NCBI RefSeq assembly: GCF_051622035.1
Contig: NC_135356.1
Span: 12,944,079 to 13,008,078 of the forward strand
Direction of reading: 5' to 3'
Source of the DNA: Arctopsyche grandis
Lineage: Eukaryota > Arthropoda > Insecta > Trichoptera > Hydropsychidae
DNA length: 64,000 nt
Of this stretch, positions 1 to 59,906 are shown piece by piece. The notes under the pieces were generated by a model. It had not been told where the DNA came from, made no database searches, and worked only from the letters and a program-made list of their open reading frames with translations. Positions within the stretch are counted from its first letter, which is position 1; the number at the start of each line of letters is the position of its first letter. Both the position numbers and the translations under genes were made by a program.

Positions 1-131
1 TACCATTCAACCGGTTGCGATGAAACTTACATGAGTTATTGTGTGCATGCCCACGATGTTTTCTGTAAAAAAATCCCACCCTAAAACGGGAATTGCATGC
101 GTTATTGTGGCATTGCAACGCATGCCGGGTT
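1..131 (+). mobile_element. Helitron-like element, 3' end (truncated by window start)
   Basis: The stretch ends in a short hairpin (GGCAT...ATGCC) followed by GGGTTAGT, matching the 3' ends near 26,946 (+) and 35,921 (-), where the tail is GGGTTCAGCTAGT. A 3' hairpin followed by CTAG(T) is the usual end of insect Helitrons. No Rep/helicase coding is seen, so this would be non-autonomous. The CTAG itself is degraded in this copy. Confidence 0.4.
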
Positions 132-135
132 AGTA

Positions 136-1034
136 ATAAATATAATAAAATAAAAAAGTATGAGCTATCAAAGGCCTTGCAGTTAGCTTCAGAACACTGT
201 ATATTGCGATCTATTTTTTTTAATACTCTCGGATCTGCGGAACGATTTTTCGTACCATATACGGAGTTTCGGAAAGACACAATAATATTTTCTGTTTTCG
301 GAGTTTCAAATATATTTACTAATTTTTAATACTAAGCAGCCACTGCAAAGCTACGTTTTTTTCAAAAATATTTTTAATCTTTTCAAAATTTGTCCTTTTT
401 TATTCAAAATTTACAAGCTCGCCCAGGGGAACCAATCTTGTGCTGTTTCCATTAAATCCACCTCTATCAAGATACCAAGACGAACTTCGAATGAAAATGC
501 TGGATATGAGGAAAAACAAAATATATTTTTTCATTGAGCCGATTATGTTTATGAAATGATTGTTTGTATAAAAATACTCTGTGTTGTATTTGAAGTACAA
601 TCGAAAATCACAAGTAATTATATGCATGTACAGTTGAAATGATTGTATAATAATTACTTGTGTTGTACCTTAAGGTTTCCACCGCATCCTAGGTTTATAC
701 AACTCTATGAAGAAATATAAGTAAGTATAAATTTTATATATTTTGCACATGTTTTCTAAAAATTTTTCACCATTTATATGCACCTATGTATGAATGTATG
801 TATTGTTTAACAAAAGCTTTGCGAACATTTGATAAATTGTTTGTGGAATTTTAGATGATCGCATTAACTGTTGATTGCTTGTCTAACGACCGACTTTCAT
901 ATATACTATACTATCATTTATTATTTTCTGCTTATATCACGCGACTTGTTGACGTGTAACATACCACTGAATCCATTGCTTCTTCATTTATAACCGAATG
1001 ACTTCACATTGATATATATTTTTTTCACTTAAAA
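136..1034. other. No gene recognised
   Basis: AT-rich sequence. Short open frames exist on both strands but none shows a recognisable domain or splice context. Possible 5' exon material of the gene at 1419-1794 could lie here; nothing supports a specific call. Confidence 0.3.
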
Positions 1035-1099
1035 TTGAATGATGAAAAGTCTAGACATGAAATGCTCGCATTTAATGTACGGTCAACTATTATTATAAT

Positions 1100-1211
1100 C
1101 AAGGCTGTGGAGTCGAACGAAAACGCTTCCATATTTGATTTCAATGCATTGCTGAATGATTTGAAGAACATTCAGAGTGAGATTTTTTCACGACTCGACT
1201 CGGCACCGTTG
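1100..1211. repeat. Short repeat with GGCTGTGGAGTCG end
   Basis: Begins CAAGGCTGTGGAGTCGAACG and ends CGACTCGGCACCGTTG, roughly inverted. The same terminal motif flanks the element at 39,329-41,731 and occurs near 25,040. A 60-residue open frame (1035-1217) covers it, so a coding exon cannot be excluded, but no splice donor follows it and the repeat explanation is simpler. Confidence 0.4.
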
Positions 1212-1418
1212 ATTTAGCAACTTTATATGTAAATTTATATATTATATAATGTATACCTGTGTTATATATAATGCTTTATGATTCGTGTTTTGATTTATAT
1301 ATATATATATACATACTGTATGTATGTATATATACACACACGCACACACAGAATAGCGCTATTATATTATATGTACGATATACATATCTTTTTCATACGA
1401 TTTTTTACTTACTCACAG

Positions 1419-1794
1419 TTCTAAATTCGAGGAAGCCTACCGGTATGCTTTAATAATAATGACAGCATTTAAGGAGGACATCAGGTTGTTTAGACGGCTG
1501 GTCAGTGAGATTAAAACTGATATATGCTCATCGTGCTTGATGCTAGTGTACAAATACAAAAAATATCCCCCCGGAACAACAGTGGACTGGAATCACGTCA
1601 GTTGATATATAATATTCATTTGAAAACGTCTTTAGATTTATTATTTGAATTTTGAGTTCGACCAAACATTACAGATAATCGACTCGAGAATTCCTGGCGA
1701 AGAAAAGGCAGAGGCAACAATGGTTAATGTAGACCCTCTGGTACCACCAGCTAGAGAAGTTGAAAATCCACCAGACCAGCTCGATGACGATTGA
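1419..1794 (+). CDS. Unidentified protein, two 3'-terminal exons
   Basis: Two exons splice cleanly: 1419-1596 (acceptor ..CTCACAG, donor CAC|GTCAGT) and 1675-1794 (acceptor ..ATTACAG, stop TGA). Joined they give 98 codons in one frame. Exon A starts SKFEEAYRYAL and continues with a helical, charged stretch (FKEDIRLFRRLVSEIK) and a CSSC pair. Exon B is acidic and proline-rich (VDPLVPPAREVENPPDQ) and ends in DDD. Composition and splice sites look like a real gene, and the 78-bp intron is typical of insects. I do not recognise the family and find no catalytic motif. Upstream exons are not identified; 1035-1217 is a weak candidate. It may be the end of a gene lying mostly to the left of the window. 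Confidence 0.45.
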
Positions 1795-2038
1795 AACACT
1801 GGATTTAAAAACGCATGTAATTATGTCAATATTGTATAAAGAATAGATATTTTTGTAAACGTGTACTCGATACACGGAAGACTGAGAAGGATAGTCATTT
1901 ATATATAGTAGTATTTAAAATGTGATAATTAATATGATCAGTTTACATACATGTGATTGCTGATTTTTTTTTTTGTTTTTGTGAACTGATCGAATGAGAT
2001 GTGTGAGCATGATGTTAAAATACATCAAATATTTGGCT

Positions 2039-2164
2039 GTGATTTAAGACGACCTTTGTTTTGTTTATTAGCTTGAAATATATATAAAAGTATATCATAA
2101 TATTAGATGTATTTTGAAATTAAATTATACGTACAGAATTATAAAAAAATCCCAACAGTATTTA

Positions 2165-2240
<76 letters not shown>

Positions 2241-3486
2241 TAAATAGTAGAGAGTAAGACTGCAATTTATGGACTAATTTATTTGTTTATGTTAATTGTT
2301 ATTAAACATGTTTACGTTTTGCTATACATATTTACAATGCATATATGTATGAATGTATGTATATATTTTATAGTTTATATGTTATATTTGTTAAACTACT
2401 GATTTTTAGTTACATATATGTATGTATGCTACCAGAAGATAGCATAGATGTTTATTTATTTGTCATGTAAATTTTTTTTAAAAATATACGCTGTACTTTG
2501 TTTTGTTCTAAAAACGAATAATGAGCTCTGACCGAAAAAGTCTTTGAATCTTGTGATTTAAGACGATCTTTGTTTTGTTTATTAGCTTGAAATATATATA
2601 AAAGTATATCATAATATTAGATGTATTTTGAAATTAAATTATACGTACAGAATTATAAAAAAATCCCAACAGTATTTAATGTATATATATATATAAATTA
2701 AATAGTAGAGAGTAAGACTGCAATTTATGGACTAATTTCTTTGTTTATGTTAATTGTTATTAAACATGTTTACGTTTTGCTATACATATTTACAATGCAT
2801 ATATGTATGAATGTATGTATGTACATATGTATATATTTTATAGTTTATATGTTATATTTGTTAAACTACTGATTTTTAGTTACATATATGTATGTATGCT
2901 ACCAGAAGAGAGCATAGATGTTTATTTATTTGTCATGTAATTTTTTTTTAAATATACGCTGTACTTTGTTTTGTTCTAAAAACGAATAATGAGCTCTGAC
3001 CGAAAAAGTCTTTAAATCTTGTGATTTAAGACGATTTTTGTTATGTTTATTAGCTTGAAATATATATAAAAGTATATCATAATATTAGATGTATTTTAAA
3101 ATTAAATTATACGTACAGAATTATAAAAAAATCCCAACAGTATTTAATGTATATATATATAAATTAAATAGTAGAGAGTAAGACTGCAATTTATGGACTA
3201 ATTTCTTTGTTTATGTTAATTGTTATTAAACATGTTTACGTTTTGCTATACATATTTACAATGCATATATGTATGAATGTATGTATGTACATATGTATAT
3301 ATTTTATAGTTTATATGTTATATTTGTTAAACTACTGATTTTTAGTTACATATATGTATGTATGCTACCAGAAGAGAGCATAGATGTTTATTTATTTGTC
3401 ATGTAAATTTTTTTAAAAATATACGCTATACTTTGTTTTGTTCTAAAAATGAATAAAGAGCTCTGACCGAAAAAGTCTTTTGAATT
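2039..3486. repeat. Three tandem copies of a ~468-bp unit
   Basis: Units start at GTGATTTAAGACGA: about 2039-2552, 2553-3020 and 3021-3486. Each holds the same series of landmarks: ATCCCAACAGTATTTAATG, a (TA) run, AATAGTAGAGAGTAAGACTG, CTACCAGAAGA, and the closing GAGCTCTGACCGAAAAAGTC. Copies differ by a few substitutions. Copy 1 is longer because its (TA)n has expanded. No coding is apparent. This looks like a recent local triplication or a short satellite array. Confidence 0.9.
2168..2236. repeat. (TA)n microsatellite
   Basis: About 69 bp of uninterrupted TA inside unit 1 of the tandem array. The same position carries only a short run (under 20 bp) in units 2 and 3, so it expanded after the unit was duplicated. 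Confidence 0.95.
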
Positions 3487-4287
3487 TTAGTGTTTTTGGC
3501 AATATGTGTGCATAGAGAAATTAGCTGTTTGAAAGACAAAAATTTCGAAAGTTGTTCAAAAAATATTTTAGAAAATCAATGTGTATACTTGAAGATTTCA
3601 TCAAAATATATATATTTTTATTTCATTATTCTTTTTCTTTGTAAACAAGCTTTCATCAATTTCCATGGTTAATCTATTTTTGTCTGCTATATTCTGTTTT
3701 CGTCGTTAAGATTCTTGGCGCAGATTTCTCATGTAATTATTGCAATCGACAGTTGTGTTCTTGGTTATGTCTATCACCTTCTTGGAAAATTTGATTGAAA
3801 TCAATTCTTTAGCTCAATAATGTAAGAAACAAATATCTGTCACAAATGGTAGTCGGCAGTTTGTTTCGATTAGAGGATTAAGCACAATTCAAGATTCAAA
3901 AAAGGCAAAAGATTTTTCTCTTTTGTAAGAATACCACCATCTTCTTCAGTAGATGATAGAGCGAATGAGTCAAATAAAAAAAAATGACTAAGGATAATAA
4001 AATTTAAATTTATTAAACGTTAGCTATTTCCACATACGAGTAAAAGTAATAAAGGTATTATAAAACGTGTGATGTGGTCCAAATTTAAAGCAATTGAATT
4101 CTGCAATGGCAAAATCCAAATTATTTGTTAGTCTTCTAGCTTTAAAATGTCTTTAAAATTTACACAATTCGTCAGCTCTGCACGAATTTTTTCAATAATT
4201 GATTGCAATGAACTGTTTAATCATAACAAGGAAGTGGAAGAAATCATAAAAAAAATGTATACAGCTGTCTCATTTACAAGCGATGAC
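3487..4287. other. No gene recognised
   Basis: AT-rich sequence without a convincing open frame. It lies between the tandem array and a hAT insertion and may contain the decayed 5' part of the hAT relic recognisable from 5590 on. Confidence 0.3.
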
Positions 4288-5385
4288 TAGAGACACGTAT
4301 TTTGGGCATTTTGCTATTAATGCTTAATTGATGCTAAAATTCGGAATATATGCTAATAGATTCTAAAAGCGTAAAATATGCGAATAGATGCTAAAATAAT
4401 AAACAAAAGTGAAATTTGCATTAAATTTATAAAATTAATAGACAATTTAGAAGGTTCTTCCTATCCCTTTGCCCATTTATTATGTGAAGAATTCGAGGGG
4501 ATAAAACAGAGCTTGCAGTTTACCATAAATGGTGTTTTTCCTGTCGAAACCAAGCAACTGCTTTTGTCTACTACTGTAAACAAAAGAAGACAGTTGGAGC
4601 TGTGTATCCAAAAGGCTGCTCAAAAAAGCGTCTTAAAACTAGACTCGCACTCAAGACTAAATGAGACAAATCTATTCCTCCAAACATTGAGTAAACTATC
4701 CAATCCATCTATGGCAGGCACAAAATCTAATATGAATGTTAAGGAAACAGTTTTGTTTTTTTAGAAACCTGCCATTGTTTAATGTATTAAGAGGCTCAAT
4801 GTTTGGAAGGATATCAGCACTTTTTTTAATAGAGAATATAAAAAGTGAATCCACGCCGGATATATTGCTACTATTGATGGCAACAAAAATTAAATACGAA
4901 GAGTTTGGTTGTGCAGCTCTAAAATATAGTTGATGTCCCGTCAATAGTGTGGATGCTGAAAGGTATTTTAGTAAATACAATATACCTATAATAGTTACCG
5001 ATCGTCGCACGAATCGGTAAAAAAGAATCTGTAGAAATATGCTCTATCTATGTTGAGTTTTAATAAATTTTAATTGGTATTATATTTTTATATTCATATT
5101 TTTTGTCTTTGTATTTTTATATTCATGTTTTTTTCATTGTAATTTTAATTCCAAAACATTTTAGAATTTTTCTATTATTTTTTAATTGTTGTGTTGTCTT
5201 TAAATTGTATATATGTATGTATATACATTTTATTAAAATTCATTGAAATTTTTTATTATTTAAAATTAAACTCTTTATAAAAATAGATACTAAAATTGAA
5301 CATTTTTAATGCCCTAAAACGCTAAAATGCAAAACTGAAAATGCTAAAATTGACAAAAATAGATGAACAAAAATACGTATCTCTA
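4288..5385 (+). mobile_element. hAT element with 8-bp target duplication GCGATGAC
   Basis: The left end TAGAGACACGTATTTT and the right end AAATACGTATCTCTA are imperfect inverted repeats. They are flanked on both sides by GCGATGAC (4280-4287 and 5386-5393), the 8-bp duplication length of hAT transposons. The interior carries a decayed hAT transposase, and both subterminal regions repeat the word ATGCTAAAA. At 1098 bp it is internally deleted compared with a full hAT of roughly 3 kb. Confidence 0.85.
4378..5060 (+). pseudogene. hAT transposase C-terminal remnant
   Basis: Frame 4378-4764 (128 codons) resembles the region before the hAT dimerisation domain. After a frame break, codons from about 4855 read KYEEFGCAALKYS, then a stop, then SVDAERYFSKYN...VTDRR. 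The motif S-[VA]-[DE]-A-E-R-x-F-S followed by LTDRR is the conserved C-terminal hAT dimerisation signature. At least one frameshift and two stops make it non-functional. The N-terminal zinc finger and most of the RNase-H-like core are missing. Confidence 0.8.
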
Positions 5386-26854: not shown

Positions 26855-29800
26855 TATAATGTTGGAGCAATCTGTTAGGCGAGTGTGCATGATTAATTGA
26901 AAAAAAAAATATTCTGGCATTGCAACGCATGCCGGGTTCAGCTAGTATACATATATTATTCAATAAATATATAAATGAGAGTGAAAAAAGTAACTGTCAT
27001 AACTGTTTAGTCTGTGAGTTGTGAAGGGGCGGTATAAAGACGTGTTTGGATAGCTAGCTGTCATCGCTTCACCTCCCCATTACCGTACAAAGCAAGAATC
27101 TAGTGTACAATAGTGAACCATTTTTTGTGCATATATTATCGTCCAAACCCCGCCATTTAGTCATGACCAGACTTCGGTGGCTGAGATGTCGCCATAAAAT
27201 AACAATAGATCTCTCCATTGTCCGAGAAAGCAGGAGAGCAAAAAAACTGGTTAATAATAGTAATGTATAGAGGTAGGACCGGAAGCGTGCCGTTCTTTGT
27301 TTATTGTTCGTTGTGCATTGTTCATTTTTATGATGAACCTTTGTTAAAGGTTCGCCGAACCTTTTTTTATTGCACTCTAGCTTTGTTAATAGACCCAAAA
27401 CGCCGTGTTTCCTGGAAAAAGCACGCTCTCTATCCGCCCTTTAGTAATGTATAACAGTGAACCTTTTTTTTTGGCCGTCAAGCATCGTCGCCGTCGATCT
27501 CTGGTCTTGACTAAAGTTTCCATTTCCCAGGAGAGATAGTTGACTATTTTCAATTACTAGTGTCCTACTAACTTAGAGAGCAAAAAAAAAGGTTGACATA
27601 GAAATTAACAATAGTGAACCCATTTTTTGTCCAAATAGAAACCGGCCACCGTCCCTTAGTCATGATTAAAGGCCGGATCCACAGCGCGCCGTTTATTGTT
27701 CAATTGTTGTAAATGCTATTGTTCAATTGTTGTAAAAGGTTCCCCCAACCTTTTTTTTGTACTCTAGCTTTGTAAATATCGCCAAACCGCCCCGATCTAT
27801 TCGCAGTCTAGTCATGACTAGAGGTAGGACCGGAAGCTTGCTGTTTATTGTTCAATTGTTGTAAATCCTTTGTAAAAAAGGTTCGGCAAACCTTAAACAA
27901 TGCATTTACAACATTTGAACAATATACAGCCCCCTCAGGGTCCGGGCTTTAGTCATGACACTTGAATTTGTTACGGAGATTTGTAGGAGTTGGTAAAATA
28001 GTACTCACACTGGTTTTCTCAGATGCTTAAATCCCAATATTTATTTATTTACAGGTAAGACCCATTTTAATACATAGAAAAATAAAATTACATAAAAATA
28101 ATAACAAGAGAAAAAAAAATTAATAGATAAAAGTAATAACACATGTTATTTAATCATATAAATATGACAAAAACATGGTAATATGGAAATGTAAAAATAG
28201 TAAAAAACAGAATAGATAAAAGATAAAAGAAGAGGACAATAATAAAATTCACAATAAAAAAAAATTGTGCTGTATAGAAGTAATAAATTGACCATATAAA
28301 TATGTAGATATTAAATAGTGACGTGTTATTAGGAATGCAACCAGAGTAATAATTTTAACTAATAACTGAATTTGAAACGCACTAAGTAATTAAGATACGT
28401 GTAAGACAGTTTTAACACGAGATTTATGTATAGCCCTCAAGTGCTATTGTTGATAAAGACATACATACATACATAGCTTATTGTGGAACTATTTGAGAGT
28501 TGCATGGGTCATGAGTTATGACTCATGAGACATATGCAGCTATGTTCATGAAAATAAAGCTCGTGCGACCACTTTGTCTTAAAATAATTAATCAACGTAT
28601 TGAAAACCCTAATAAATGATGGATATTTTTTTCGAGTTAAACAGGACGTAGTCTTGAAATAGTAAAGTTATTGAAAAATCTAATAAATGCTGACAAATAA
28701 TTTTAAGAGTAAACATCAATAGTATTTCAAAAAGAAATTGTATTCAACTAGTATGTATGTATTTACGTATCAGTGGGGTGCCGTGGAAATCTCCCTGTTT
28801 TTGTGGCACAGCTTCACAGGCGAAAACACACAGCAATGTACGTGGCACGTGGTTTTTTTTTGATACTTTAAAACATGCGAAAAAAATGTACCGTACCTTG
28901 CACATATTCATGGAACGCCCAGCACGCCCCGTCCCAAAATAACTCACTGGAGTGTTTTCGGTAAAATTGTATCCTTGTATTTCTCCTTGCTTGACACTGA
29001 TCGATAATGGTGTATCCCTTATTTGAAGAAATGTAGCAGACCACACACCGCGGGGTGCCATGCACACGATGTGCCGTTCTTCCTTGTGTGATTTCGCCTT
29101 TACATGTATGCGAGCAGGACAGAAGGTGATTCGGTATGACTTCACCATGTCTGAAGAGTGAATACAATATCTACTACTTTATTACAACTTAAAAGTTCTT
29201 ATCTATCTTTTCTCTTTTTCTCGTTTTCTTTTTTCTTTTTTCTTTTTTCTTTTTTTCATTTTCTTTTTCTCTTTCACTTCTCGTTTCTGTTTGTATTTTC
29301 CGATGTGTCGTTACAGAAAAATGTTGAGAGTTCCTATCCCAAATTTGCTATTGCAATTTTTTTTTCAACTTTTATTTTCGGTTACGCTCCCGACGGTAAT
29401 GTTCATTCACTTCCTCTATCTGAGAAATTTGACTTTTAAATAAGAAATTAGAAATTAACTGCTGAATGTCTTAAAAAAGAAAAGCGGTCGTTGCACAATA
29501 AAGGAATTCAATGACTGTGTAAAACGTGCCTGAAATACAAATTAGGCAAAAAGAATAACGGAACCTTCCATAATAGTATTTCTACATAGGTACGTGCGAA
29601 AAAAAAAATGTTCCGAAAAGCCAGAGCTGGCTCAACTGCGAGTTCAATTTGTTATAGTATGACACTAAATTAGACACAAGATTGGTTTCGGAAGGGCGCG
29701 GAGCTCGGAATCGATGAGCTCTCATACAAAAACACCCGGTCTACGCCATGCGTGTGTTGTCAGCTATGCAAATTTACACCTCTCATGTTAGCAAGGTTTG

Positions 29801-32800
29801 ATTTGTTATCATATGACTTTAAATTAGACCCAAGATTGGTTTTGGATGGGCTTGGAGCCCGAGATCAAAGTTCTCCAAATGTGTATTTTTTCGCTATGAA
29901 AATCCACAGCTTTCGCTTTGGAACTAAAAATTAGATCATATATGGTTTTCAGAAGGCGTCGGAGCCAGAAATTTAGGGGCACCCATACAATATTATACAT
30001 TTAGAAAGTCGCGTAGACAAGATTCTCTTCAAAGAAGAAATCCATCAAGCAGTTAGGTAAACAATCGACAGTTGGTAACAACGAGGTCATGTTGATACAT
30101 TGTGTCAACTGTAAAGTAATAAATACTCTTCTGTTTCAAGGTTATTGATTTGAAATCGATCTTTTAATGCGATGAGTCGTTTATTTAACCATTTGCTAAA
30201 AAAAATCGCTTTATCACAAGTGATATCTGAGAATATATGTACATACGTATGTAGTTATTCAAAGTTATGATCGTGCGAATTGACTGTCGCGAGTCATTGC
30301 TGACTTTGATTGAGGTGTGACCAGAAATTTTCGTTCATAGCTTTATGATACGATCCATTGTTCGACGAAGAATGCGTCTAAGTTCTCCAATGCCAAAATT
30401 TGACTTTGAATGCTGATTGGTGTGTAATATAAACTGGCACATCCGTTCCTGCAACACGTCTGAAGTTTGATTGTATGCGAAGTATGTATACAGGGTGGGA
30501 AGAAAAACTTACACAAATCAAGCTGAGCTCAGTGCTTTCACTAGTAATTAGTAGAGGTAGGATAGCCAAGGGGCCGCTCATTGTTCCATTGTTGTAAATC
30601 CTTTGTAAAAATGGTTCGGCACACCTTTAACAATGCATTTAAAACATTTGAACAATACGCGGCACCTTCTGGGTCCGGGCTTTAGTAATTAGAATCCAGA
30701 ATCATAGGACTTACACATATCCGGGCAACGCCGGCCAACTCCATAGTTTTCAATAAATTGGCAACCGAAAGTGACCAAGAATCCGTTGGCTCCTTAAGAG
30801 TTGTCAATGTATGATTATACAGTCACACGTGAACATATGTAGCTTTTACTTTATCTATGTACGTAGTAACAATATATGAAGTTTTGTGATCATGCGTGAA
30901 TTCAATATTTTTACCTGAACCGGAAGTAATAATTTTACTCTAGAGAATATAGTTTTTTTTTTTTGTTTTTCTTATAAAACCTTTTGGTTAATTGAACTGA
31001 AATTTCATATCTAGAAGTTTAAGCTTAATACCAAGTTATGTATAAAATTTGGTAAGCATCCGTCAACCAGAAATGGCAGTTTACTCTTTTCCGATTTTTC
31101 TTTCACTATTTTTTTCGACCCCTTAAACATGTGTGCTCTTCGCGAAAAAAATCAAGTACAATTCTTGTATCAATGTGATAAAAATCATTAAATTTAATAA
31201 ACCGGAAGTGGAATTTTTTCCACTACTCATTATTACTCATTATTTCCACACCCTGAACGTATCAAGCTGAAAATTTATATTTGTATTCTTTATGTACTAA
31301 CTTAGAGCTGATAAGGTTTTGGTCCGAATTAGTGGTGGTTACTCCAGCAATAAAATCACCGTGACCAGACTAAACGTCGGTAACCGATCAGCCGACTATA
31401 TTGATTGGGAAACCAGTGAGTTGCCTAAGCAATTGCATACATTTGATCTGGTCGCGCAACTAAGTCCCGGCCAAATTGCTCGCAAGTCTCCAGGTGTGGC
31501 CCGGCGCTTACGATGGGTCGACGGGTGAAGCGTTTTTCACAGCATGTTTTTTCGTGAATATTGGATACAAGCGGTATCAATACTGTGATACAAGTCTAGT
31601 TTTCTGATGTGCTTTTTTTTTGCATGTAATTCGATCTTATTGTGTATTGACAGTTTCTAAAAGTTCCCATGTAATTGTGTCGCGTCAATTTGGTCTGTCG
31701 CTTTGGCTCGAATCGAATTTGGGTCAATTTGCGGCATGTCGCGTAAACACATTACGTACAAAGCCAAATGACCGACAGGAAATTGCCGGAGTTGACACGA
31801 GCGACACCTCAAAGCAACCAGGATATGCGAGTTCGTTTTTTACAGGAAATCTGAAATTTCGATTGAGTATCACTGGTATGTATAGTAAAAATTTGCAACC
31901 GTGCAATTGACGACCGTCGCGCTCTACATGTTGTAGCCTCGTGCTCTACATTGTATGTATGTACGTATCGCTTGTATCTTTTCCAACTCTAATATCATAA
32001 GGAATGTGGAATCGGAATTGTCGATTCAAGAAAATTTGAAAAAAATTTCGACAGCGGCGCATGTCTTTATTGCTATATTATTTATTATTATTATTTTTTT
32101 TTTACATATATACCAGGAAGGCCTTATAGGTAGAGTACGGATAGCCAAGGGGCCGCTTATTGTTCAATTGTTCTAAAATTCTTTTCAATCGAGGTCAGCT
32201 CATGGGATCGAACCCGGCGCCTCTCGACGCTAAACAGAAGCTTAACGACCGAGCTATGCTGCTGGCATATATATGCCAGCAGCATATATGTGTACATATA
32301 TTGAATACTAGTGGTTTTACCCGGATTCGATCGGTATTTGTAATATAAACCGCATAAACATGGCTAATTTAATAAATAGTAAACATTCATTTGTTTTTTT
32401 ATTAAATTTATTTGAATCGAAAAAAAATAATATTCAACGATATCGATATCGTCGTCATAAAAACTTTGATTTGTTTTCGATGCTCCCAACCAAACCTTAC
32501 ATACATATGTAGTTACAAAGTTTCTTTCGAAATTTTATATTAGATGGTGAATATTTTTAAAATTTGTCTATACATTTCTCTATATGTAATATTTTATTAA
32601 AAAGTACTCGGGTGACCCCGCCACACTGATAAAAGTTGCAATACACATTACGTAAGTAAAAATTCCACGTGAAAAATCTAGGCTAGGAGGGGAAGAAAGG
32701 GATGAGATGGTACGCATCTTTATGTTTGCGTTATGTGTACAAGCGCAGCACACATAATCATACGGTACGGCATGCCTAGGTAGACTCTAGCTGTGAATGG

Positions 32801-52639: not shown

Positions 52640-53402
52640 GTTTAAGGTTCGACAGTTTTTTGTTGGGCGTCATCGCGCAAAACATCTCGATTGTTTTAAA
52701 ATCAAAAATTATTACGTTATTCGAAGCAAATCTTTCTATACGTGAAATATCTCAATGAGTGAGATTTGGAGAGCGCTCAGTTCGTCGATTTTTGAAAAAA
52801 TATCGAGACACTTACTCTGGGGAGGAAACCTGGGATCGGAAGTTGACGTGTGATCAGTAGAGGTAGGATAGCCAAGGTGCCGCTCATTGTTCCATTGTTG
52901 TAAATCCTTTGTAAAAAAGGTTCGGCAAACCTTTAACAATGCATTTACAACATTTGAACAATACGCGGCACCCTCTGGGTCCGGGCTTTAGTGATCAGTG
53001 TTCACGAAGATCGTCGTATCGAGCACATAATGCTAGAAAATCCATTCAAAACAGTGGTAGAAATTCCAGCAGAGCTTCAACCATCAGATCAAGTGACATT
53101 TTCAGAAAAAAACATCGAGGAAGTGACTTTCGGAGCATGAATATCGGTCACACCACCCTGCCAAAAAGCCGTTTCTTACACTTAAAATGCGAAAAAATCA
53201 TCTAAATTGGGCTAAGAACCATAGGCATTGGACTGTCGATGATCGGAAAAGGGTTGTAGTTTCTGAAAAATTGAAGTTCAATTTCTTTGGGCAGGATGGG
53301 ATGTGTATGGTTCGTCGGAAAGTTGGCGAAAGATTCCGCGCGGAATGCATTTCTCCGGTCGTTGCGCATTCACCCCAATTAATGGTTTAAGGGTGTATGA
53401 CC
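52640..53402 (+). pseudogene. Degenerate Tc1-like transposase, left part
   Basis: Helix-turn-helix pieces (ANLSIREISQ, stop, VRFGERSVRRFLKKYRDTYS) run into a 133-bp MITE (52,858-52,990). Codons then resume as RIEHIMLENPFKTVVEIPAE and, after frame changes, MRKNHLNWAKNHRHWTVDDR and KLKFNFFGQDGMCMVRRKVG. The catalytic Asp of the usual SDESKF motif is lost (VVSEKLKF). The frame reaches GCMT (after a stop) exactly where the foldback element inserted, and continues on the far side at 59,720. Confidence 0.8.
52858..52990 (+). mobile_element. 133-bp hAT-like MITE, target duplication GTGATCAG
   Basis: Starts TAGAGGTAGGATAGCCAAGG and ends GGGTCCGGGCTTTA. It is flanked by GTGATCAG (52,850-52,857; 52,991-52,998). 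It is inserted in the dead Tc1-like transposase. Confidence 0.95.
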
Positions 53403-55433
53403 CGGTACGTGACGATTGGGCGCCCAGGACGATTGGGCGATCAGTGTTACTCGCCACTGCGACAATTGGACGACGAGACTGGCGGACACTGCGTCAATTG
53501 GGCCCTGCGTCAATTGGGCGCCCATCGCACTGGGCGATCATCGACTGGCCGACGGCGACCGGGCGACCAGGGCGCGTGGGCGACCACCGACACGGCCCGC
53601 TGGTGAAGTGGTCGCCAAGCTTACGTAAACTCTGCGTTTTGCAAGGAACGACCGCGAACGGAGCGTTATAGGAATTTCCGATGCACTGACAAATATTCTA
53701 CCTACATACATATGCTTTATACCGCTTTATTTTTCGTTTCAGTTTTACCAATTTTTCGTAACAACACGAATCATACTATTAATTTTTTTCGCTATATTAT
53801 ATTACATTTGCTGGAATTTTATATTAAACGTACTTTTATAAATACATGTGTAGCACCTTTTCACAAAAAATAATTGTAAGATGACAAATCATATGTACCT
53901 AAATATTCTCCAAAATAATATAAAAGAAAAATGATCGATTGAATCTTTCGCGCAGTGCTTTTAGTTTTTTTTCAAATGGACACACTTTTTTTTCTTTTAA
54001 ATGTTATATTTCAGTTTTATCAATTGGATAAATTCACACTCTATTCTCAATTTTCTCAACACTGTATTAGTTATACATAATAACAAAATATTTTCTAATA
54101 GCGATTCTCAAAGTTTTCAAGATTATATTTTTTTTCAATGATGAAATACGTTTACGAAAAAAAAGCGCATACTTAAATTCGTTCGCGGAGCTCGAATAAT
54201 TTTTTTCGGCTTTTCCCATAATTAAATTATTACATCGTTTACGATTCGCAGAGGCAATTCTCGAAAAAAATAGCTTTTTAAAGTAATTTTAAACATCTCC
54301 CGTTCTATGGTTATTGTTGAAAATTACATTGAGCCACAAAAAATCACGTTTTTTAGTTACCAGAGCGGAGACTAACCAATCTTTACTAACTTTGACCCAC
54401 TGAATTCGAATATGATATTGATTTTTGCTGGTTGGTGATTGTTTACGAGATATGAGCGTTTAAAAAAATGCGCGATTTTTATAGTTTTTTGGCTTTTGCG
54501 GTCTTTAACTCAAAACCTAGTATTGCTGTGCTCAAAGTGAGTATTGGAATCAATAGTCAGATGTTTTTCCTATTTATTTGTGATATTGCATTGCTTTAAA
54601 ATACTTATAATTAATTGTCTAGCGAATTTTAAAAGTCAAAAAAATATTTTTTTTACGGATTTTTTCTCCGTGCTATTTTGCATTTATTTGGCAATTTTTT
54701 TATTTCACCTCGTTTATAAGGATTGGTTTTCTATTTCAATATTTTTTATTTTTATCTAAACGTACTAACTCGAGCGGTAATTGCAATTTAAATGCTTTCG
54801 TTTTTGTTGCTCAGTGTTATTATAGTCACATTAAAATCTATATGATAGTTTATAGTAATTAAGGCTCATTTCGTTTATCAATAATTTAATAAGGTATATT
54901 TTTACTAATTAATATCTTTCGCTTTTGTAAATTCGAAACATACATACATATGTATAACGAATTATGTTTACATCTATAACTGTCAGCCAGCGCTCATCTG
55001 TTCATCTAATGTATAATTTCTTTAATAATATTTTATGCGTATAAAATATTACAAAGACCTTACAAGAAATTATATATTTTCAAATATTTGGACCGAATGA
55101 ACGAACTCATTCAAAACGTTTTTTTTTTACTATGAGTGGCAGTTTTATTGCCTAAAGATAAATAATACCGCGTCTCATAGGCTAGGCTAGAGATGCTCTG
55201 CAAGTCATTTTGATAAAAGAGTTCTCAAAACGACTTTTGACAACTGTTTCTCGAACTACTTTTTTTCTTGATTGTTTTACATGACATGTTATACATACAT
55301 ACATATGTAAGGTTTTTCAACGGGTTTTTGCGGTATCATAAATTCATGGCCCTCAAATTTGGTTTAAAATAATGCAATGACGTAAATGATTTTATACCCT
55401 TTATCCTTTTATTAAATTCAAATTATTCTGAAA
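53403..55433 (+). repeat. Foldback element, left arm
   Basis: GC-rich subterminal block to about 53,680 (GACGATTGGGCGCC, GACGATTGGGCGATCAG, GACAATTGGACGACG, GTCAATTGGGCCC, GTCAATTGGGCGCCC), then AT-rich. A 71-codon hydrophobic open frame (54,544-54,759) is mirrored in the right arm, but looks like a by-product of AT-rich sequence. Confidence 0.92.
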
Positions 55434-57687
55434 TGGTTTTCATCGTTTTTTCAAAACCTCTCCGATAAAATAAACGTTTTTTATTCCAAAAAAAATGGCA
55501 AAGTTTCAAAGCGATCGGAAAAGTTTTAGGAGGTTTGTCCAAAACTAAGATAAACCTTGTAATTTTCAAATGTTATAATTAGCATGGAAATAATTTTTTC
55601 AATGTATGTATGTGTGTGTTGTATGAATGTACATACATATGTACATATGTTATTTTGAAAATTTTCAATTTAATATTTATTTTCATTATTCATCAATGAA
55701 AAGTAAATCAAAAAACTTTATTAATACTATGATTTGATGAATATACTAAATACTGGCGATTCTAGAATTGATCTAATGTTGAGAGTTACAAATTTTACAC
55801 GTTTTGGATTTTCGTAAGATTAAAAATAAGCACCAATCACACGGTTGATCCCATATTTTTTAAGATCATCGAAAGCCGATGCAATTCGCGCTATTATATA
55901 AGTATTTATATTTTTATTTTTGAACATTTAATTTGTACGAATTATTTTTACGTAAATTTGTACGAATATCGATTTTTATATTTTCGGGGCAATGAGAGAA
56001 TTTGTTCGCAGAAGGGCCAAAGAGGCATTGTATTGCATTAAGACGATTGTATCGTAAAAATATCAAATATTATGTTCTTCCCCTTTTTTTTGTCGAAGGG
56101 ATCGGTACCTGAAGGGATCGGTCCAAAATATCATCTAATGTTGAATGAATCACTGTTAGAAAATATTTTGTAATTATGTATAACTATTACAGTGTAGTAC
56201 AAAATTGAGAATAGGGTGTGAATTTATCCAATTGATAAAACTGAAATATAACATTTAAAAGAGAAAAAAGTGTGTCCATTTGAAAAATGTTTGCAATTTT
56301 GGGACCGACCATTTATTTCATTGTTTTGGTAGGTAATCGTAAAACCTGCTTCGAGAAGAAAAAAAAATACTGAATGAAAATCGACGGATTGATTGCAAAA
56401 TTATTTAAGGCTCATTTCGTATTTACTTACCTATTATACAGTTCACATGGTTTTTAATATCTATTGCTTTTGTAAAGTAGCAACATACATACATACATAT
56501 GTACATATGTACGTGTATAACGAATCATGTTTACATCTACATATGTACATATGTATAACGGTCATCCAGCACTCATCTGTTTATCTAATACAGCGGTTCA
56601 GATTTCAAATTTCCAGCAAGAAATTGTAAAAGTAAATCACTTGATCAGTGATATATTAATAATATTAATAATAATTTGAATACGATATTGAAAAAATAAT
56701 ATTGGAATAAATTAAAAAAGGTCGAATAAAACGGGTCGATTTATGAGTTTCTAGAATTGACTACATACCAGCAATTCTAAAATTAATTTAATGTAAATAA
56801 ATAAATGTCTTTGAATACAAATTTTACATATTTTGGAATTTCGTAAGATTAGGAATAAGCATTTATTACGGTTGATCCACATTTTTTAACAAACAAACCG
56901 ATGATAGTCGCTCTATTGATCGACTAAATAATAATTAAAAAACACAAATCGCAGCCGAATTGATTACAGTTATACAGGAAAAAAAATAATTACGTAGGTT
57001 AATTCTCGCTCGAATGTTTGGTGTTAGTTGGGTATGTTTTTGAGAACAATAAACTGACCATTTAAGACTCAAATTCATTGAAGTATCTACTCCAATGCTC
57101 AAATGTGATACGAAAATATCTCCCTACAATAGAAAGTTATAAAAAAAAACTCTCGAATGTTAGACAATACTTTAAACACGTTTTGTATATATTTTCCTTT
57201 TTTAATGTTAACTGTATAATTTATTTAAGTTCAGTTATTTTTTTAGTCAAATGAATGGTAAAAAAAGGAAGCAGATGATTATAATGAAAAAATTAAGGTG
57301 AAGAAATAGAGAATATTAAATTGATCACCAAAAATACAATGTCGAAAGTCAGTTTTTACGAGCCCAGCTCAAATATGCAAATTCGAAAATATGGCTGCCA
57401 TATCTACGATAGAAGCTCACATGAATATGATCAATATGCTAATAAGTTACGAAATGTGTTTGATAGATTTAAAGATTTTTCAAAAATAGAGGATATAATA
57501 TTATTCATGTCATTCCCATTCAATGATGAAATACAAATAGAAGAAATATCAATCAAATTAAAATAATTTTTGGATGTAGACCAAATACTAGTTGAGGATG
57601 AAATACTTAAATTAAAATGCGAAATATTTTTGAAATCAAGACCTTCCCTCAAAATAGTTATTGGAATTTACTCTGTGATGAAAAATA
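55434..57687. repeat. Foldback element, centre with diverged arm copies
   Basis: 56,140-56,290 resembles the right-arm segment near 59,030-59,160 (same orientation). 56,400-56,600 resembles the left-arm segment near 54,860-55,020 (same orientation). 55,740-55,870 and 56,757-56,890 are direct diverged repeats (TTTTGGA(A/T)TTTCGTAAGATTA, CGGTTGATCC). So older duplications lie between the fresh arms. Confidence 0.75.
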
Positions 57688-57690
57688 TTT
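57290..57690 (+). pseudogene. hAT-like transposase relic inside the foldback element
   Basis: An 81-codon frame (57,321-57,566) reads HEYDQYANKLRNVFDRFKDF, then SKIEDIILFMSFPFNDEIQI, stop, then VDQILVEDEILKLKCEIFLK and, in another frame, YWNLLCDEKYF. The RF-x-DF-x-KIE word also occurs in the hAT relic at 5,680, and the order (RF.DF..IE, FPF, EI..L...I.LK, FW.L..DEKY) fits the middle of GTF2IRD2/EPM2AIP1-like hAT proteins. This is an inference from pattern only. Confidence 0.45.
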
Positions 57691-59719
57691 TCAGAATAAT
57701 TTGAATTTAATAAAAGGATAAAGGGTATAAAATCATTTACGTCATTGCATTATTTTAAACCAAATTTGAGGGCCATGAATTTATGATACCGCAAAAACCC
57801 GTTGAAAAACCTTACATATGTATGTATGTATAACATGTCATGTAAAACAATCAAGAAAAAAAGTAGTTCGAGAAACAGTTGTCAAAAGTCGTTTTGAGAA
57901 CTCTTTTATCAAAATGACTTGCAGAGCATCTCTAGCCTAGCCTATGAGACGCGGTATTATTTATCTTTAGGCAATAAAACTGCCACTCATAGTAAAAAAA
58001 AAACGTTTTGAATGAGTTCGTTCATTCGGTCCAAATATTTGAAAATATATAATTTCTTGTAAGGTCTTTGTAATATTTTATACGCATAAAATATTATTAA
58101 AGAAATTATACATTAGATGAACAGGTGAGCGCTGGATGACAGTTATAGATGTAAACATAATTCGTTATACATATGTATGTATGTTTCGAATTTACAAAAG
58201 CGAAAGATATTAATTAGTAAAAATATACCTTATTAAATTATTGATAAACGAAATGAGCCTTAATTACTATAAACTATCATATAGATTTTAATGTGACTAT
58301 AATAACACTGAGCAACAAAAACGAAAGCATTTAAATTGCAATTACCGCTCGAGTTAGTACGTTTAGATAAAAATAAAAAATATTGAAATAGAAAACCAAT
58401 CCTTATAAACGAGGTGAAATAAAAAAATTGCCAAATAAATGCAAAATAGCACGGAGAAAAAATCCGTAAAAAAAATATTTTTTTGACTTTTAAAATTCGC
58501 TAGACAATTAATTATAAGTATTTTAAAGCAATGCAATATCACAAATAAATAGGAAAAACATCTGACTATTGATTCCAATACTCACTTTGAGCACAGCAAT
58601 ACTAGGTTTTGAGTTAAAGACCGCAAAAGCCAAAAAACTATAAAAATCGCGCATTTTTTTAAACGCTCATATCTCGTAAACAATCACCAACCAGCAAAAA
58701 TCAATATCATATTCGAATTCAGTGGGTCAAAGTTAGTAAAGATTGGTTAGTCTCCGCTCTGGTAACTAAAAAACGTGATTTTTTGTGGCTCAATGTAATT
58801 TTCAACAATAACCATAGAACGGGAGATGTTTAAAATTACTTTAAAAAGCTATTTTTTTCGAGAATTGCCTCTGCGAATCGTAAACGATGTAATAATTTAA
58901 TTATGGGAAAAGCCGAAAAAAATTATTCGAGCTCCGCGAACGAATTTAAGTATGCGCTTTTTTTTCGTAAACGTATTTCATCATTGAAAAAAAATATAAT
59001 CTTGAAAACTTTGAGAATCGCTATTAGAAAATATTTTGTTATTATGTATAACTAATACAGTGTTGAGAAAATTGAGAATAGAGTGTGAATTTATCCAATT
59101 GATAAAACTGAAATATAACATTTAAAAGAAAAAAAAGTGTGTCCATTTGAAAAAAAACTAAAAGCACTGCGCGAAAGATTCAATCGATCATTTTTCTTTT
59201 ATATTATTTTGGAGAATATGTAGGTACATATGATTTGTCATCTTACAATTATTTTTTGTGAAAAGGTGCTACACATGTATTTATAAAAGTACGTTTAATA
59301 TAAAATTCCAGCAAATGTAATATAATATAGCGAAAAAAATTAATAGTATGATTCGTGTTGTTACGAAAAATTGGTAAAACTGAAACGAAAAATAAAGCGG
59401 TATAAAGCATATGTATGTAGGTAGAATATTTGTCAGTGCATCGGAAATTCCTATAACGCTCCGTTCGCGGTCGTTCCTTGCAAAACGCAGAGTTTACGTA
59501 AGCTTGGCGACCACTTCACCAGCGGGCCGTGTCGGTGGTCGCCCACGCGCCCTGGTCGCCCGGTCGCCGTCGGCCAGTCGATGATCGCCCAGTGCGATGG
59601 GCGCCCAATTGACGCAGGGCCCAATTGACGCAGTGTCCGCCAGTCTCGTCGTCCAATTGTCGCAGTGGCGAGTAACACTGATCGCCCAATCGTCCTGGGC
59701 GCCCAATCGACCGTGTCCC
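57688..59719 (-). repeat. Foldback element, right arm
   Basis: Inverted copy of the left arm, from TTTCAGAATAATTTGAATTT inward to the GC-rich end GGGACACGGTCGATTGGGCG (read on the minus strand). The outermost 12 bases differ between the arms, while the following GATTGGGCGCCCAGGACGAT is identical. Confidence 0.92.
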
Positions 59720-59790
59720 GTATGACCGCATATGGTTTAGGATCCCTGACCAGTATTGAGAGAATAATGAATGCAGAAAAGTACAAAAAT
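59720..59790 (+). pseudogene. Degenerate Tc1-like transposase, right part
   Basis: Continues the interrupted frame after the foldback element: MTAYGLGSLTSIERIMNAEK, then YKNV. This matches the family's pattern G-V-G-x-L-x-F-I-E-G-x-M-N-A-x-K-Y. A truncated MITE follows directly, and no further transposase is seen. Confidence 0.75.
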
Positions 59791-59906
59791 GTGCGCTGTT
59801 CATTGTTCACATGTTGTAAATGCATTGTTAAAAGTTTGCCGAACCTTTTTTACTAAGCATTTACAATAATGGAACAATAGACGGCGCGCTTCCGGTCCTA
59901 CCTCTA
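59791..59906 (-). mobile_element. hAT-like MITE (133-bp family), truncated, minus orientation
   Basis: Ends CTTCCGGTCCTACCTCTA, the inverse of the family's TAGAGGTAGGACCGGAAG start. It shares the GTTTGCCGAACC centre. About 19 bp of the other end are missing, so no target duplication remains. Confidence 0.8.

What the first reader, a model, noticed from the sequence alone, without database searches (positions are those of the whole stretch)
53403..59719. 6.3-kb foldback transposon with 2.03-kb near-identical arms and 8-bp target duplication
The element is bounded by GTATGACC on both sides and interrupts a Tc1-like transposase whose reading resumes in frame across the gap, so its borders are fixed independently of any library. 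The arms are inverted copies over about 2,030 bp with only a few differences seen by eye, which implies recent movement, gene conversion, or an assembly inversion. No intact transposase is inside. A structure this size with such arms does not fit a standard MITE.
Basis: partly seen in the sequence, partly recalled or inferred. Interest (0 to 1): 0.75.

Follow-up and report, generated by a model that had tools for sequence, protein, structure and literature searches.

The report
Foldback Mutator transposon with copied arms
A young family of jumping DNA whose two halves are mirror images, in which one copy shows how a half can be rebuilt by copying the other half; it belongs to a known kind of transposon.

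Summary
Window 53403-59719 is a 6,317-bp element with 2.03-kb inverted arms (99.7% identical) and an 8-bp target duplication. Of 43 non-window matches to the joined flanks, 38 run across the empty site (recount). It is not an assembly artefact: 35 pairs of exact tips occur genome-wide, and at 29 sites checked the duplication is 8 bp (18) or 9 bp (8).

It is a non-autonomous foldback related to a Mutator-like (MULE) transposon of FLYWCH/Phantom type. A diverged relative on C8 has the same 10-bp left tip, a broken FLYWCH+MULE transposase and downstream DNA 91% identical to the family's spacer. The outermost 10 bp are not inverted: 35 of 35 exact-tip pairs are one L plus one R. Nematode Tm1 foldback MULEs also have asymmetric tips.

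The added point is mechanism. One 13.2-kb copy has 4.6-kb arms that both contain part of one nested LTR element, joined at a 4-bp microhomology. Arms can therefore grow by copying one half onto the other. Flipped spacers and substitutions shared by both arms agree. No intact close transposase was found. New member of a known kind.

The parts
53395..53402 (+). left target-site duplication GTATGACC
   Evidence: sequence; the window copy overlaps itself by these 8 bp in the joined-flank search
59720..59727 (+). right target-site duplication GTATGACC
   Evidence: sequence
53403..53412 (+). L tip CGGTACGTGA, not part of the inverted repeat
   Evidence: 42 exact copies of the 20-base L tip in the genome
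59710..59719 (-). R tip GGGACACGGT (read inward), not part of the inverted repeat
   Evidence: 37 exact copies of the 20-base R tip in the genome
53411..53652 (+). GC-rich end with a repeated 12-bp motif (GACGATTGGGCG and variants at 53411, 53428, 53461, 53493, 53509); probable transposase binding sites
   Evidence: motif scan; function inferred by analogy with Muta1 and Tm1
59470..59711 (-). same GC-rich end, inverted
53413..55444 (+). left arm
   Evidence: blastn 99.7% to the other arm
57677..59709 (-). right arm
55445..57676 (.). spacer, no open frame of 100 aa or more
56895..57688 (-). stretch 91% identical to DNA just downstream of the MULE frame in the diverged relative on C8; flipped relative to the L tip compared with that relative
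57339..57566 (+). 75-codon frame that resembles the C-terminal part of hAT-type transposases (resemblance recalled only)
   Evidence: no Pfam match
53194..53402 (+). left part of the interrupted Tc1-like repeat (host sequence), as far as tested
59728..59794 (+). right part of the interrupted Tc1-like repeat (host sequence); most paralogues stop matching here

Best explanation
The element is a non-autonomous foldback member of a Mutator-like (FLYWCH + MULE, Phantom-type) family that has amplified recently. Inferred movement: a MULE transposase supplied in trans binds the 12-bp repeats in the GC-rich ends, cuts at one L tip and one R tip, and reinserts the element with an 8- or 9-bp duplication. 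The arms are built and kept alike by copying within one element. When a break or a stalled fork occurs inside one arm, the broken strand uses the opposite arm as template, runs into the spacer or beyond, and is rejoined at a short microhomology. This can lengthen and homogenise the arms and duplicate nested elements; recombination between the arms can flip the spacer. The 10-bp tips lie outside the homology and stay different. Shown: anatomy, duplications, kinship with a MULE-bearing locus, tip asymmetry, one copied junction, spacer flips, substitutions on both arms. Inferred: the binding sites, the trans supply of transposase, and the exact repair route.
For: Movement: 31 elements with both borders read (29 sites; two are duplicate contigs of one site) have the same tips, with 8-bp duplications at 18 sites, 9-bp at 8, 8-bp with one mismatch at 1, one in an AT run, one with none. 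Kinship: C8 locus with the same L tip, FLYWCH (E 7.6e-5, 23.2 bits, cut-off 23.6), MULE domain (E 1.2e-14), and 1.1 kb at 91% to the spacer of family member L017 (0.8 kb to the window element). Tips: 35 of 35 pairs with both tips exact are one L plus one R. Copying: J1 (C1:39103421-39116578) has one nested LTR element with a single 5-bp duplication AATAC, yet 629 bp of its LTR are in both 4.6-kb arms (99.85%), and the junction shares ATCC with the old arm. L020 has the spacer core in both orientations. 6 of 18 private substitutions are on both arms (17 of 18 elements aligned, L020 dropped).
Against: The C8 relative is old and broken, has no detected R end and no arms, so kinship rests on one end and the downstream region. 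22 MULE-locus reading frames found no MULE-domain coding sequence in any of the 18 elements. Only 1 of 59 tip pairs encloses a MULE-domain match, and that one looks like a nested element of another MULE type. The spacer also holds a hAT-like scrap. Copying with a visible junction was analysed in one element only. Near-identical arms are partly explained by youth. 12 of 18 private substitutions are on one arm only, and J4a, L028 and L029 keep differences between their arms. Tip asymmetry may persist simply because recombination cannot cross non-homologous ends.
Confidence: 0.83

Rival explanations
1. It is a foldback hAT element: the 8-bp duplications and the hAT-like scrap in the spacer reveal the parent, and the MULE kinship is an accident of nesting.
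For: 8-bp duplications at 18 of 29 sites; a 75-codon frame recalled as hAT-like.
Against: 9-bp duplications at 8 of 29 sites; tips do not look like hAT ends (recalled: CAGGG type); no Pfam match for the scrap; the L tip and GC-rich end lie in front of a FLYWCH+MULE reading on C8; the hAT-like gene in J4a has its own ends in a TA run (by eye).
Confidence: 0.07
2. The arms are alike only because the family is very young; the foldback formed once and no arm-to-arm copying goes on.
For: Between-element arm differences (2.1-3.0 per 1,000 bp) are close to within-element differences (mean 1.5); 12 of 18 private substitutions are on one arm.
Against: Arm lengths differ widely (1.04 to 4.62 kb; L020 is interrupted after 790 bp by a deletion), spacer cores occur in both orientations, a nested LTR is in both arms of J1, and 6 private substitutions are on both arms.
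Confidence: 0.12
3. Assembly artefact: one arm mirrored by an assembly or scaffolding error.
For: Long inverted repeats are error-prone; two small contigs (C15, C182) duplicate one insertion site.
Against: 35 exact-tip pairs on 13 contigs (33 sites); the 31 whose borders were read lie in their own flanks, nearly all with target duplications.
Confidence: 0.02

Closest known systems
Tm1, Mutator/Foldback family of root-knot nematodes (PMC3169594; abstract, outline and search passages seen)
   Same: Foldback ends; asymmetric 7-bp tips outside the inverted repeat (A1 CGGTTAA, A2 CCTACCC; here CGGTACG... and ...GTGTCCC); 8-10 bp duplications; short tandem repeats under the tips; a FLYWCH+MULE transposase in the family.
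   Different: Tm1 inverted repeats consist largely of about 14-bp tandem repeats and average 93% identity within an element; here arms are 1-4.6 kb, mostly not tandem, 95.5-100% identical. Tm1 is judged inactive by its authors; this family is young.
Muta1 of Aedes aegypti (PMC5225508; search passages seen)
   Same: 8- or 9-bp duplications, 12-bp subterminal repeats with 3-4 bp spacers, classed as a type 2 Foldback, over 300 non-autonomous derivatives.
   Different: Muta1 has 145-bp ends, a complete transposase and an imperfect palindrome as terminal motif.
FB4 of Drosophila (passages on Ssk-FB4 in PMC8277862)
   Same: Non-autonomous foldback, about 700-bp inverted repeats, 9-10 bp duplications, template switching invoked.
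   Different: No sequence kinship tested; the arms here are longer.
Galileo of Drosophila (PMC4168063, PMC3688188; search passages seen)
   Same: Long foldback-like inverted repeats (0.5-1.2 kb); structural variety ascribed to gap repair and recombination.
   Different: P-superfamily transposase; the duplication is 7 bp (recalled), here 8-9 bp; kinship here is with a MULE.
Tetris of Drosophila virilis (PMC4079207; search passages seen)
   Same: Foldback without transposase, 8-10 bp duplications, assigned to Mutator by its authors.
   Different: Tandem TIR-220 repeats; no complete copy encoding a transposase is known there.

Membership tests
Foldback (FB-like) transposons | long inverted arms around a spacer, with target duplications | tested here: met
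Foldback (FB-like) transposons | variable arm structure between copies | tested here: met
   arms 1.04-4.62 kb (plus L020, interrupted at 790 bp) in the 18 elements read in full
Mutator-like elements (MULE) | MULE (PF10551) transposase encoded by the family | tested here: inconclusive
   absent from the 18 elements; present, broken, at a locus that shares the L tip and spacer DNA
Mutator-like elements (MULE) | 8-11 bp target duplication (PMC6446971, passages) | tested here: met
   8 bp at 18 and 9 bp at 8 of 29 sites
Phantom subclass of MULE | FLYWCH finger with MULE domain (PMC3169594, passages) | tested here: inconclusive
   FLYWCH match just below the Pfam cut-off in the C8 relative
Phantom subclass of MULE | transposase groups with Phantom in a tree | not tested
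   no reference Phantom proteins on hand
hAT superfamily | 8-bp duplication throughout (recalled) | tested here: not met
   8 of 29 sites have 9 bp
Galileo / P superfamily | 7-bp duplication and P transposase (recalled) | tested here: not met
   duplications are 8-9 bp; a P transposase was not searched for
MITE | short element, usually under about 600 bp (recalled) | tested here: not met
   6,317 bp; exact-tip pairs span 775 to 15,603 bp

The most novel reading that the evidence does not exclude
The 10-bp tip asymmetry is enforced by the transposase, which accepts only one L with one R tip. A foldback can then exchange, convert and lengthen its arms without limit, copying whatever lies in the spacer including other transposons, while keeping a fixed polarity: a self-elongating palindrome driven by repair rather than by selection on the arms.
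Probability: 0.3. Interest if true: 0.65.

Novelty: new member of a known kind. Interest (0 to 1): 0.45.

Why it matters
How foldback arms arise and lengthen has mostly been inferred from end products. A young, multi-copy family with a nested insertion copied into both arms, a readable junction and a polarity marker at the tips makes the question directly testable. Long identical inverted repeats are also known sources of chromosome rearrangement.

Tried and rejected
The hAT-like gene in J4a (Pfam DUF4371) was first taken as a possible transposase of the family. By eye it has its own ends (CAGTGGCG... / ...CGCCACTG) in a TA run. The 9.3-kb insert in J4b is a nested LTR retroelement with gag, pol and a third ORF; the 4.2-kb insert in J1 is a gag-protease LTR element (BEL/Pao-like, recalled). 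Neither is the family's own gene.

R-R pairs (6 of 59) looked like symmetric elements. In the one pair read at both borders (L095/L096) the flanks outside the tips are inverted copies too, so a larger inverted duplication explains it; the other 5 lie in the same array or on C73 and were not read. L-L pairs (3 of 59): one (C5:9941456) has an R tip 18 bp outside it, one spans 167 bp, one (C6:5347858-5352772) stays unexplained. 31 of 149 tips were left unpaired.

An exact L tip in two IMG/VR contigs is a match without the rest of the end. Pfam did not recognise the Tc1-like host or the hAT-like scrap. A guessed DOI opened an unrelated paper. The 2010 Phantom paper is not held.

Full report
Observation. 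Its arms, 53413-55444 and 57677-59709, align over 2,033 columns with 5 mismatches and 1 gap opening. Pairing starts only at base 11; the outermost 10 bp are CGGTACGTGA on the left and, read inward, GGGACACGGT on the right. A 327-base query made of the two flanks joined without the insert gave 45 matches (40 of 724 first-look candidates scored). The window copy appears as two pieces, query 1-209 and 202-327, overlapping by the 8-bp duplication. Of the other 43 matches, 38 span the junction (best 97%, query 2-276; one of the 38 is a second piece of a place already counted), 1 stops before it and 4 are short pieces elsewhere in the query. I did not read the letters of those paralogues. So the borders are fixed by sequence outside the element.

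The family. The genome (G000, unnamed, 475.7 Mb in 189 contigs) holds 79 R tips and 70 L tips within 2 mismatches over 20 bases, 37 and 42 of them exact, against 0 each for the reversed pattern. Pairing inward-facing neighbours within 25 kb gives 59 pairs and leaves 31 of 149 tips unpaired: 50 L+R, 6 R+R and 3 L+L. Of the pairs with both tips exact, 35 of 35 are L+R. These 35 include two small contigs (C15, C182) that duplicate the site at C2:2571293, so 33 sites. I read 18 elements in full and both ends of 13 more; the remaining 4 pairs rest on tip positions and single ends. At the 29 sites of those 31 elements the duplication is 8 bp at 18, 9 bp at 8, 8 bp with one mismatch at 1, hidden in an AT run at 1, and absent at 1 (L019). 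By eye, a further site (C9:25957780) has none and another (C1:12567620) lies in an AT run. Exact-tip pairs span 775 to 15,603 bp.

What kind of transposon. No MULE-domain coding sequence was found in the 18 elements with 22 reading frames from MULE loci (matches were to the GC-rich end and, in L017 and L025, to a frame from the downstream region). Open frames of 100 aa or more were listed for all 18 (11, 7): beyond nested elements there are only short frames in arms and spacers (up to 179 aa in L017). A genome search with the MULE domain gave 60 matches (25 were fetched and compared). One, at C8:25725654, lies beside DNA 91% identical over 1.1 kb to the spacer of family member L017 and over 0.8 kb to that of the window element. 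The same locus has, about 1.5 kb upstream of the MULE frame and in the same orientation, the L tip CGGTACGTGACGATTGGACG and two pieces of the GC-rich end, 92 bp at 81.5% and 61 bp at 95%. A FLYWCH-like stretch lies at the start of the frame (E 7.6e-5, just under the Pfam cut-off); the MULE domain scores E 1.2e-14. No R end and no inverted arms were found there. The nearest relatives of that transposase piece elsewhere are broken: 73% at C9:4107814 (2 stops), 72% at C6:4513059 (1 stop), plus short C9 and C6 fragments at 63-79%; the rest of the 61 matches are at most 41% (80 of 80 candidates scored). So the family is related to a FLYWCH+MULE transposon, and no intact close transposase is visible in this assembly. 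Only 1 of 59 tip pairs encloses a MULE-domain match (C13:5280393-5291792, older tips); its R end contains the R tip of another MULE type about 90 bp in, which suggests nesting.

A second MULE family. The L076 type has open frames of 487-494 aa at 8 places; Pfam finds FLYWCH and MULE in the one tested. The two copies inspected have foldback-like ends of about 197-bp tandem repeats; by eye, L089 has asymmetric tips (GGGTTACA / GGGGACG) and a 9-bp duplication. It is a possible helper, which is inference: it is only about 31% identical to the C8 transposase.

Subterminal repeats. The first 120 bp carry GACGATTGGGCG and variants at element positions 9, 26, 59, 91 and 107, roughly on a 16-17 bp lattice. 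Muta1 has 12-bp repeats with 3-4 bp spacers and 8- or 9-bp duplications (PMC5225508, passages). Tm1 has asymmetric tips CGGTTAA and CCTACCC and 8-10 bp duplications (PMC3169594, abstract and passages). The likeness of tips and ends is by inspection.

How the arms are made. Arm lengths in the 18 elements run from 1.04 to 4.62 kb, apart from L020, whose first block ends at 790 bp at a deletion in one arm; identity of the arm blocks is 95.5 to 100%. The single-copy core of the spacer (element 2901-4200) has the window's orientation relative to the L tip in 8 elements, the opposite in 2 (in L019 only 267 bp of it), both in 2, and is absent in 6. The C8 relative has the orientation of L017, one of the two 'opposite' elements, so the window's spacer is flipped. 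The clearest case of copying is J1 (C1:39103421-39116578). A gag-protease LTR element sits in the spacer with one 5-bp duplication, AATAC, so it inserted once. Yet the left arm, from base 11 to 4,629, is a 99.85% copy of the right half including 629 bp of the second LTR, and then continues into the old left arm at window-element position 2001, with ATCC shared at the join. The simplest reading is that the left arm was re-synthesised from the right half and rejoined by microhomology. Among 17 elements aligned over the first kilobase (L020 dropped because of a deletion), 6 private substitutions are on both arms, 12 on one arm, and 4 variants are shared by several elements; of these last, two still distinguish the arms of J4a, L028 and L029, while L030 has the right-arm state on both arms. 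Gap repair and template switching at transposons are established ideas (passages in PMC4168063 and PMC8277862).

Age. Arms of different elements differ by a mean of 2.1 (L-L), 3.0 (R-R) or 2.3 (L-R) per 1,000 bp, and arms of one element by 1.5 (all 18, L020 included). The family is young, so near-identity alone would not prove conversion; the double-arm substitutions and J1 carry that point.

Limits. Genome sequence was rationed, so 17 of 35 exact-tip pairs were not read in full, and older subfamilies (tips with 1-2 changes) were seen only at a few ends. Searches for printed precedents covered openly licensed papers only. Their listings and the passages I opened show foldback MULEs and general statements on template switching; I saw no report of a nested element copied into both arms, which does not show that none exists.

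Noticed in passing
G000:C2:30336719, C11:15635054 and others (L074-L079, L083, L084, L088, L089): A MULE family with open frames of 487-494 aa at 8 places (FLYWCH+MULE in the one tested), arms of about 197-bp tandem repeats in inverted orientation, and asymmetric tips GGGTTACA / GGGGACG with 9-bp duplication CATCGATTT in L089.
   Followed up: partly
G000:C13:27463656-27539932 and C73: Array with units about 21-23 kb apart in which R ends of an older subfamily face each other; in the unit checked (L095, L096) the flanks are also inverted copies, suggesting a larger palindrome.
   Followed up: partly
L090 (C13:5291600-5291900): R end of this family followed after about 90 bp by the R tip of the L076-type MULE: two MULE ends nested in one another.
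   Followed up: partly
L100 (C5:9941380-9941640): Composite end: an R tip directly followed, 18 bp further in, by an L tip variant.
   Followed up: no
window 57339-57566: 75-codon frame recalled as similar to the C-terminal region of hAT-type transposases; similar DNA follows the MULE frame in the C8 relative, so it was probably picked up before the two diverged.
   Followed up: partly
window 52850-52998, 59795-59906, 27811-27956, 30544-30692: Related repeats, inverted around the element, perhaps belonging to another repeat beside the interrupted Tc1-like one.
   Followed up: no
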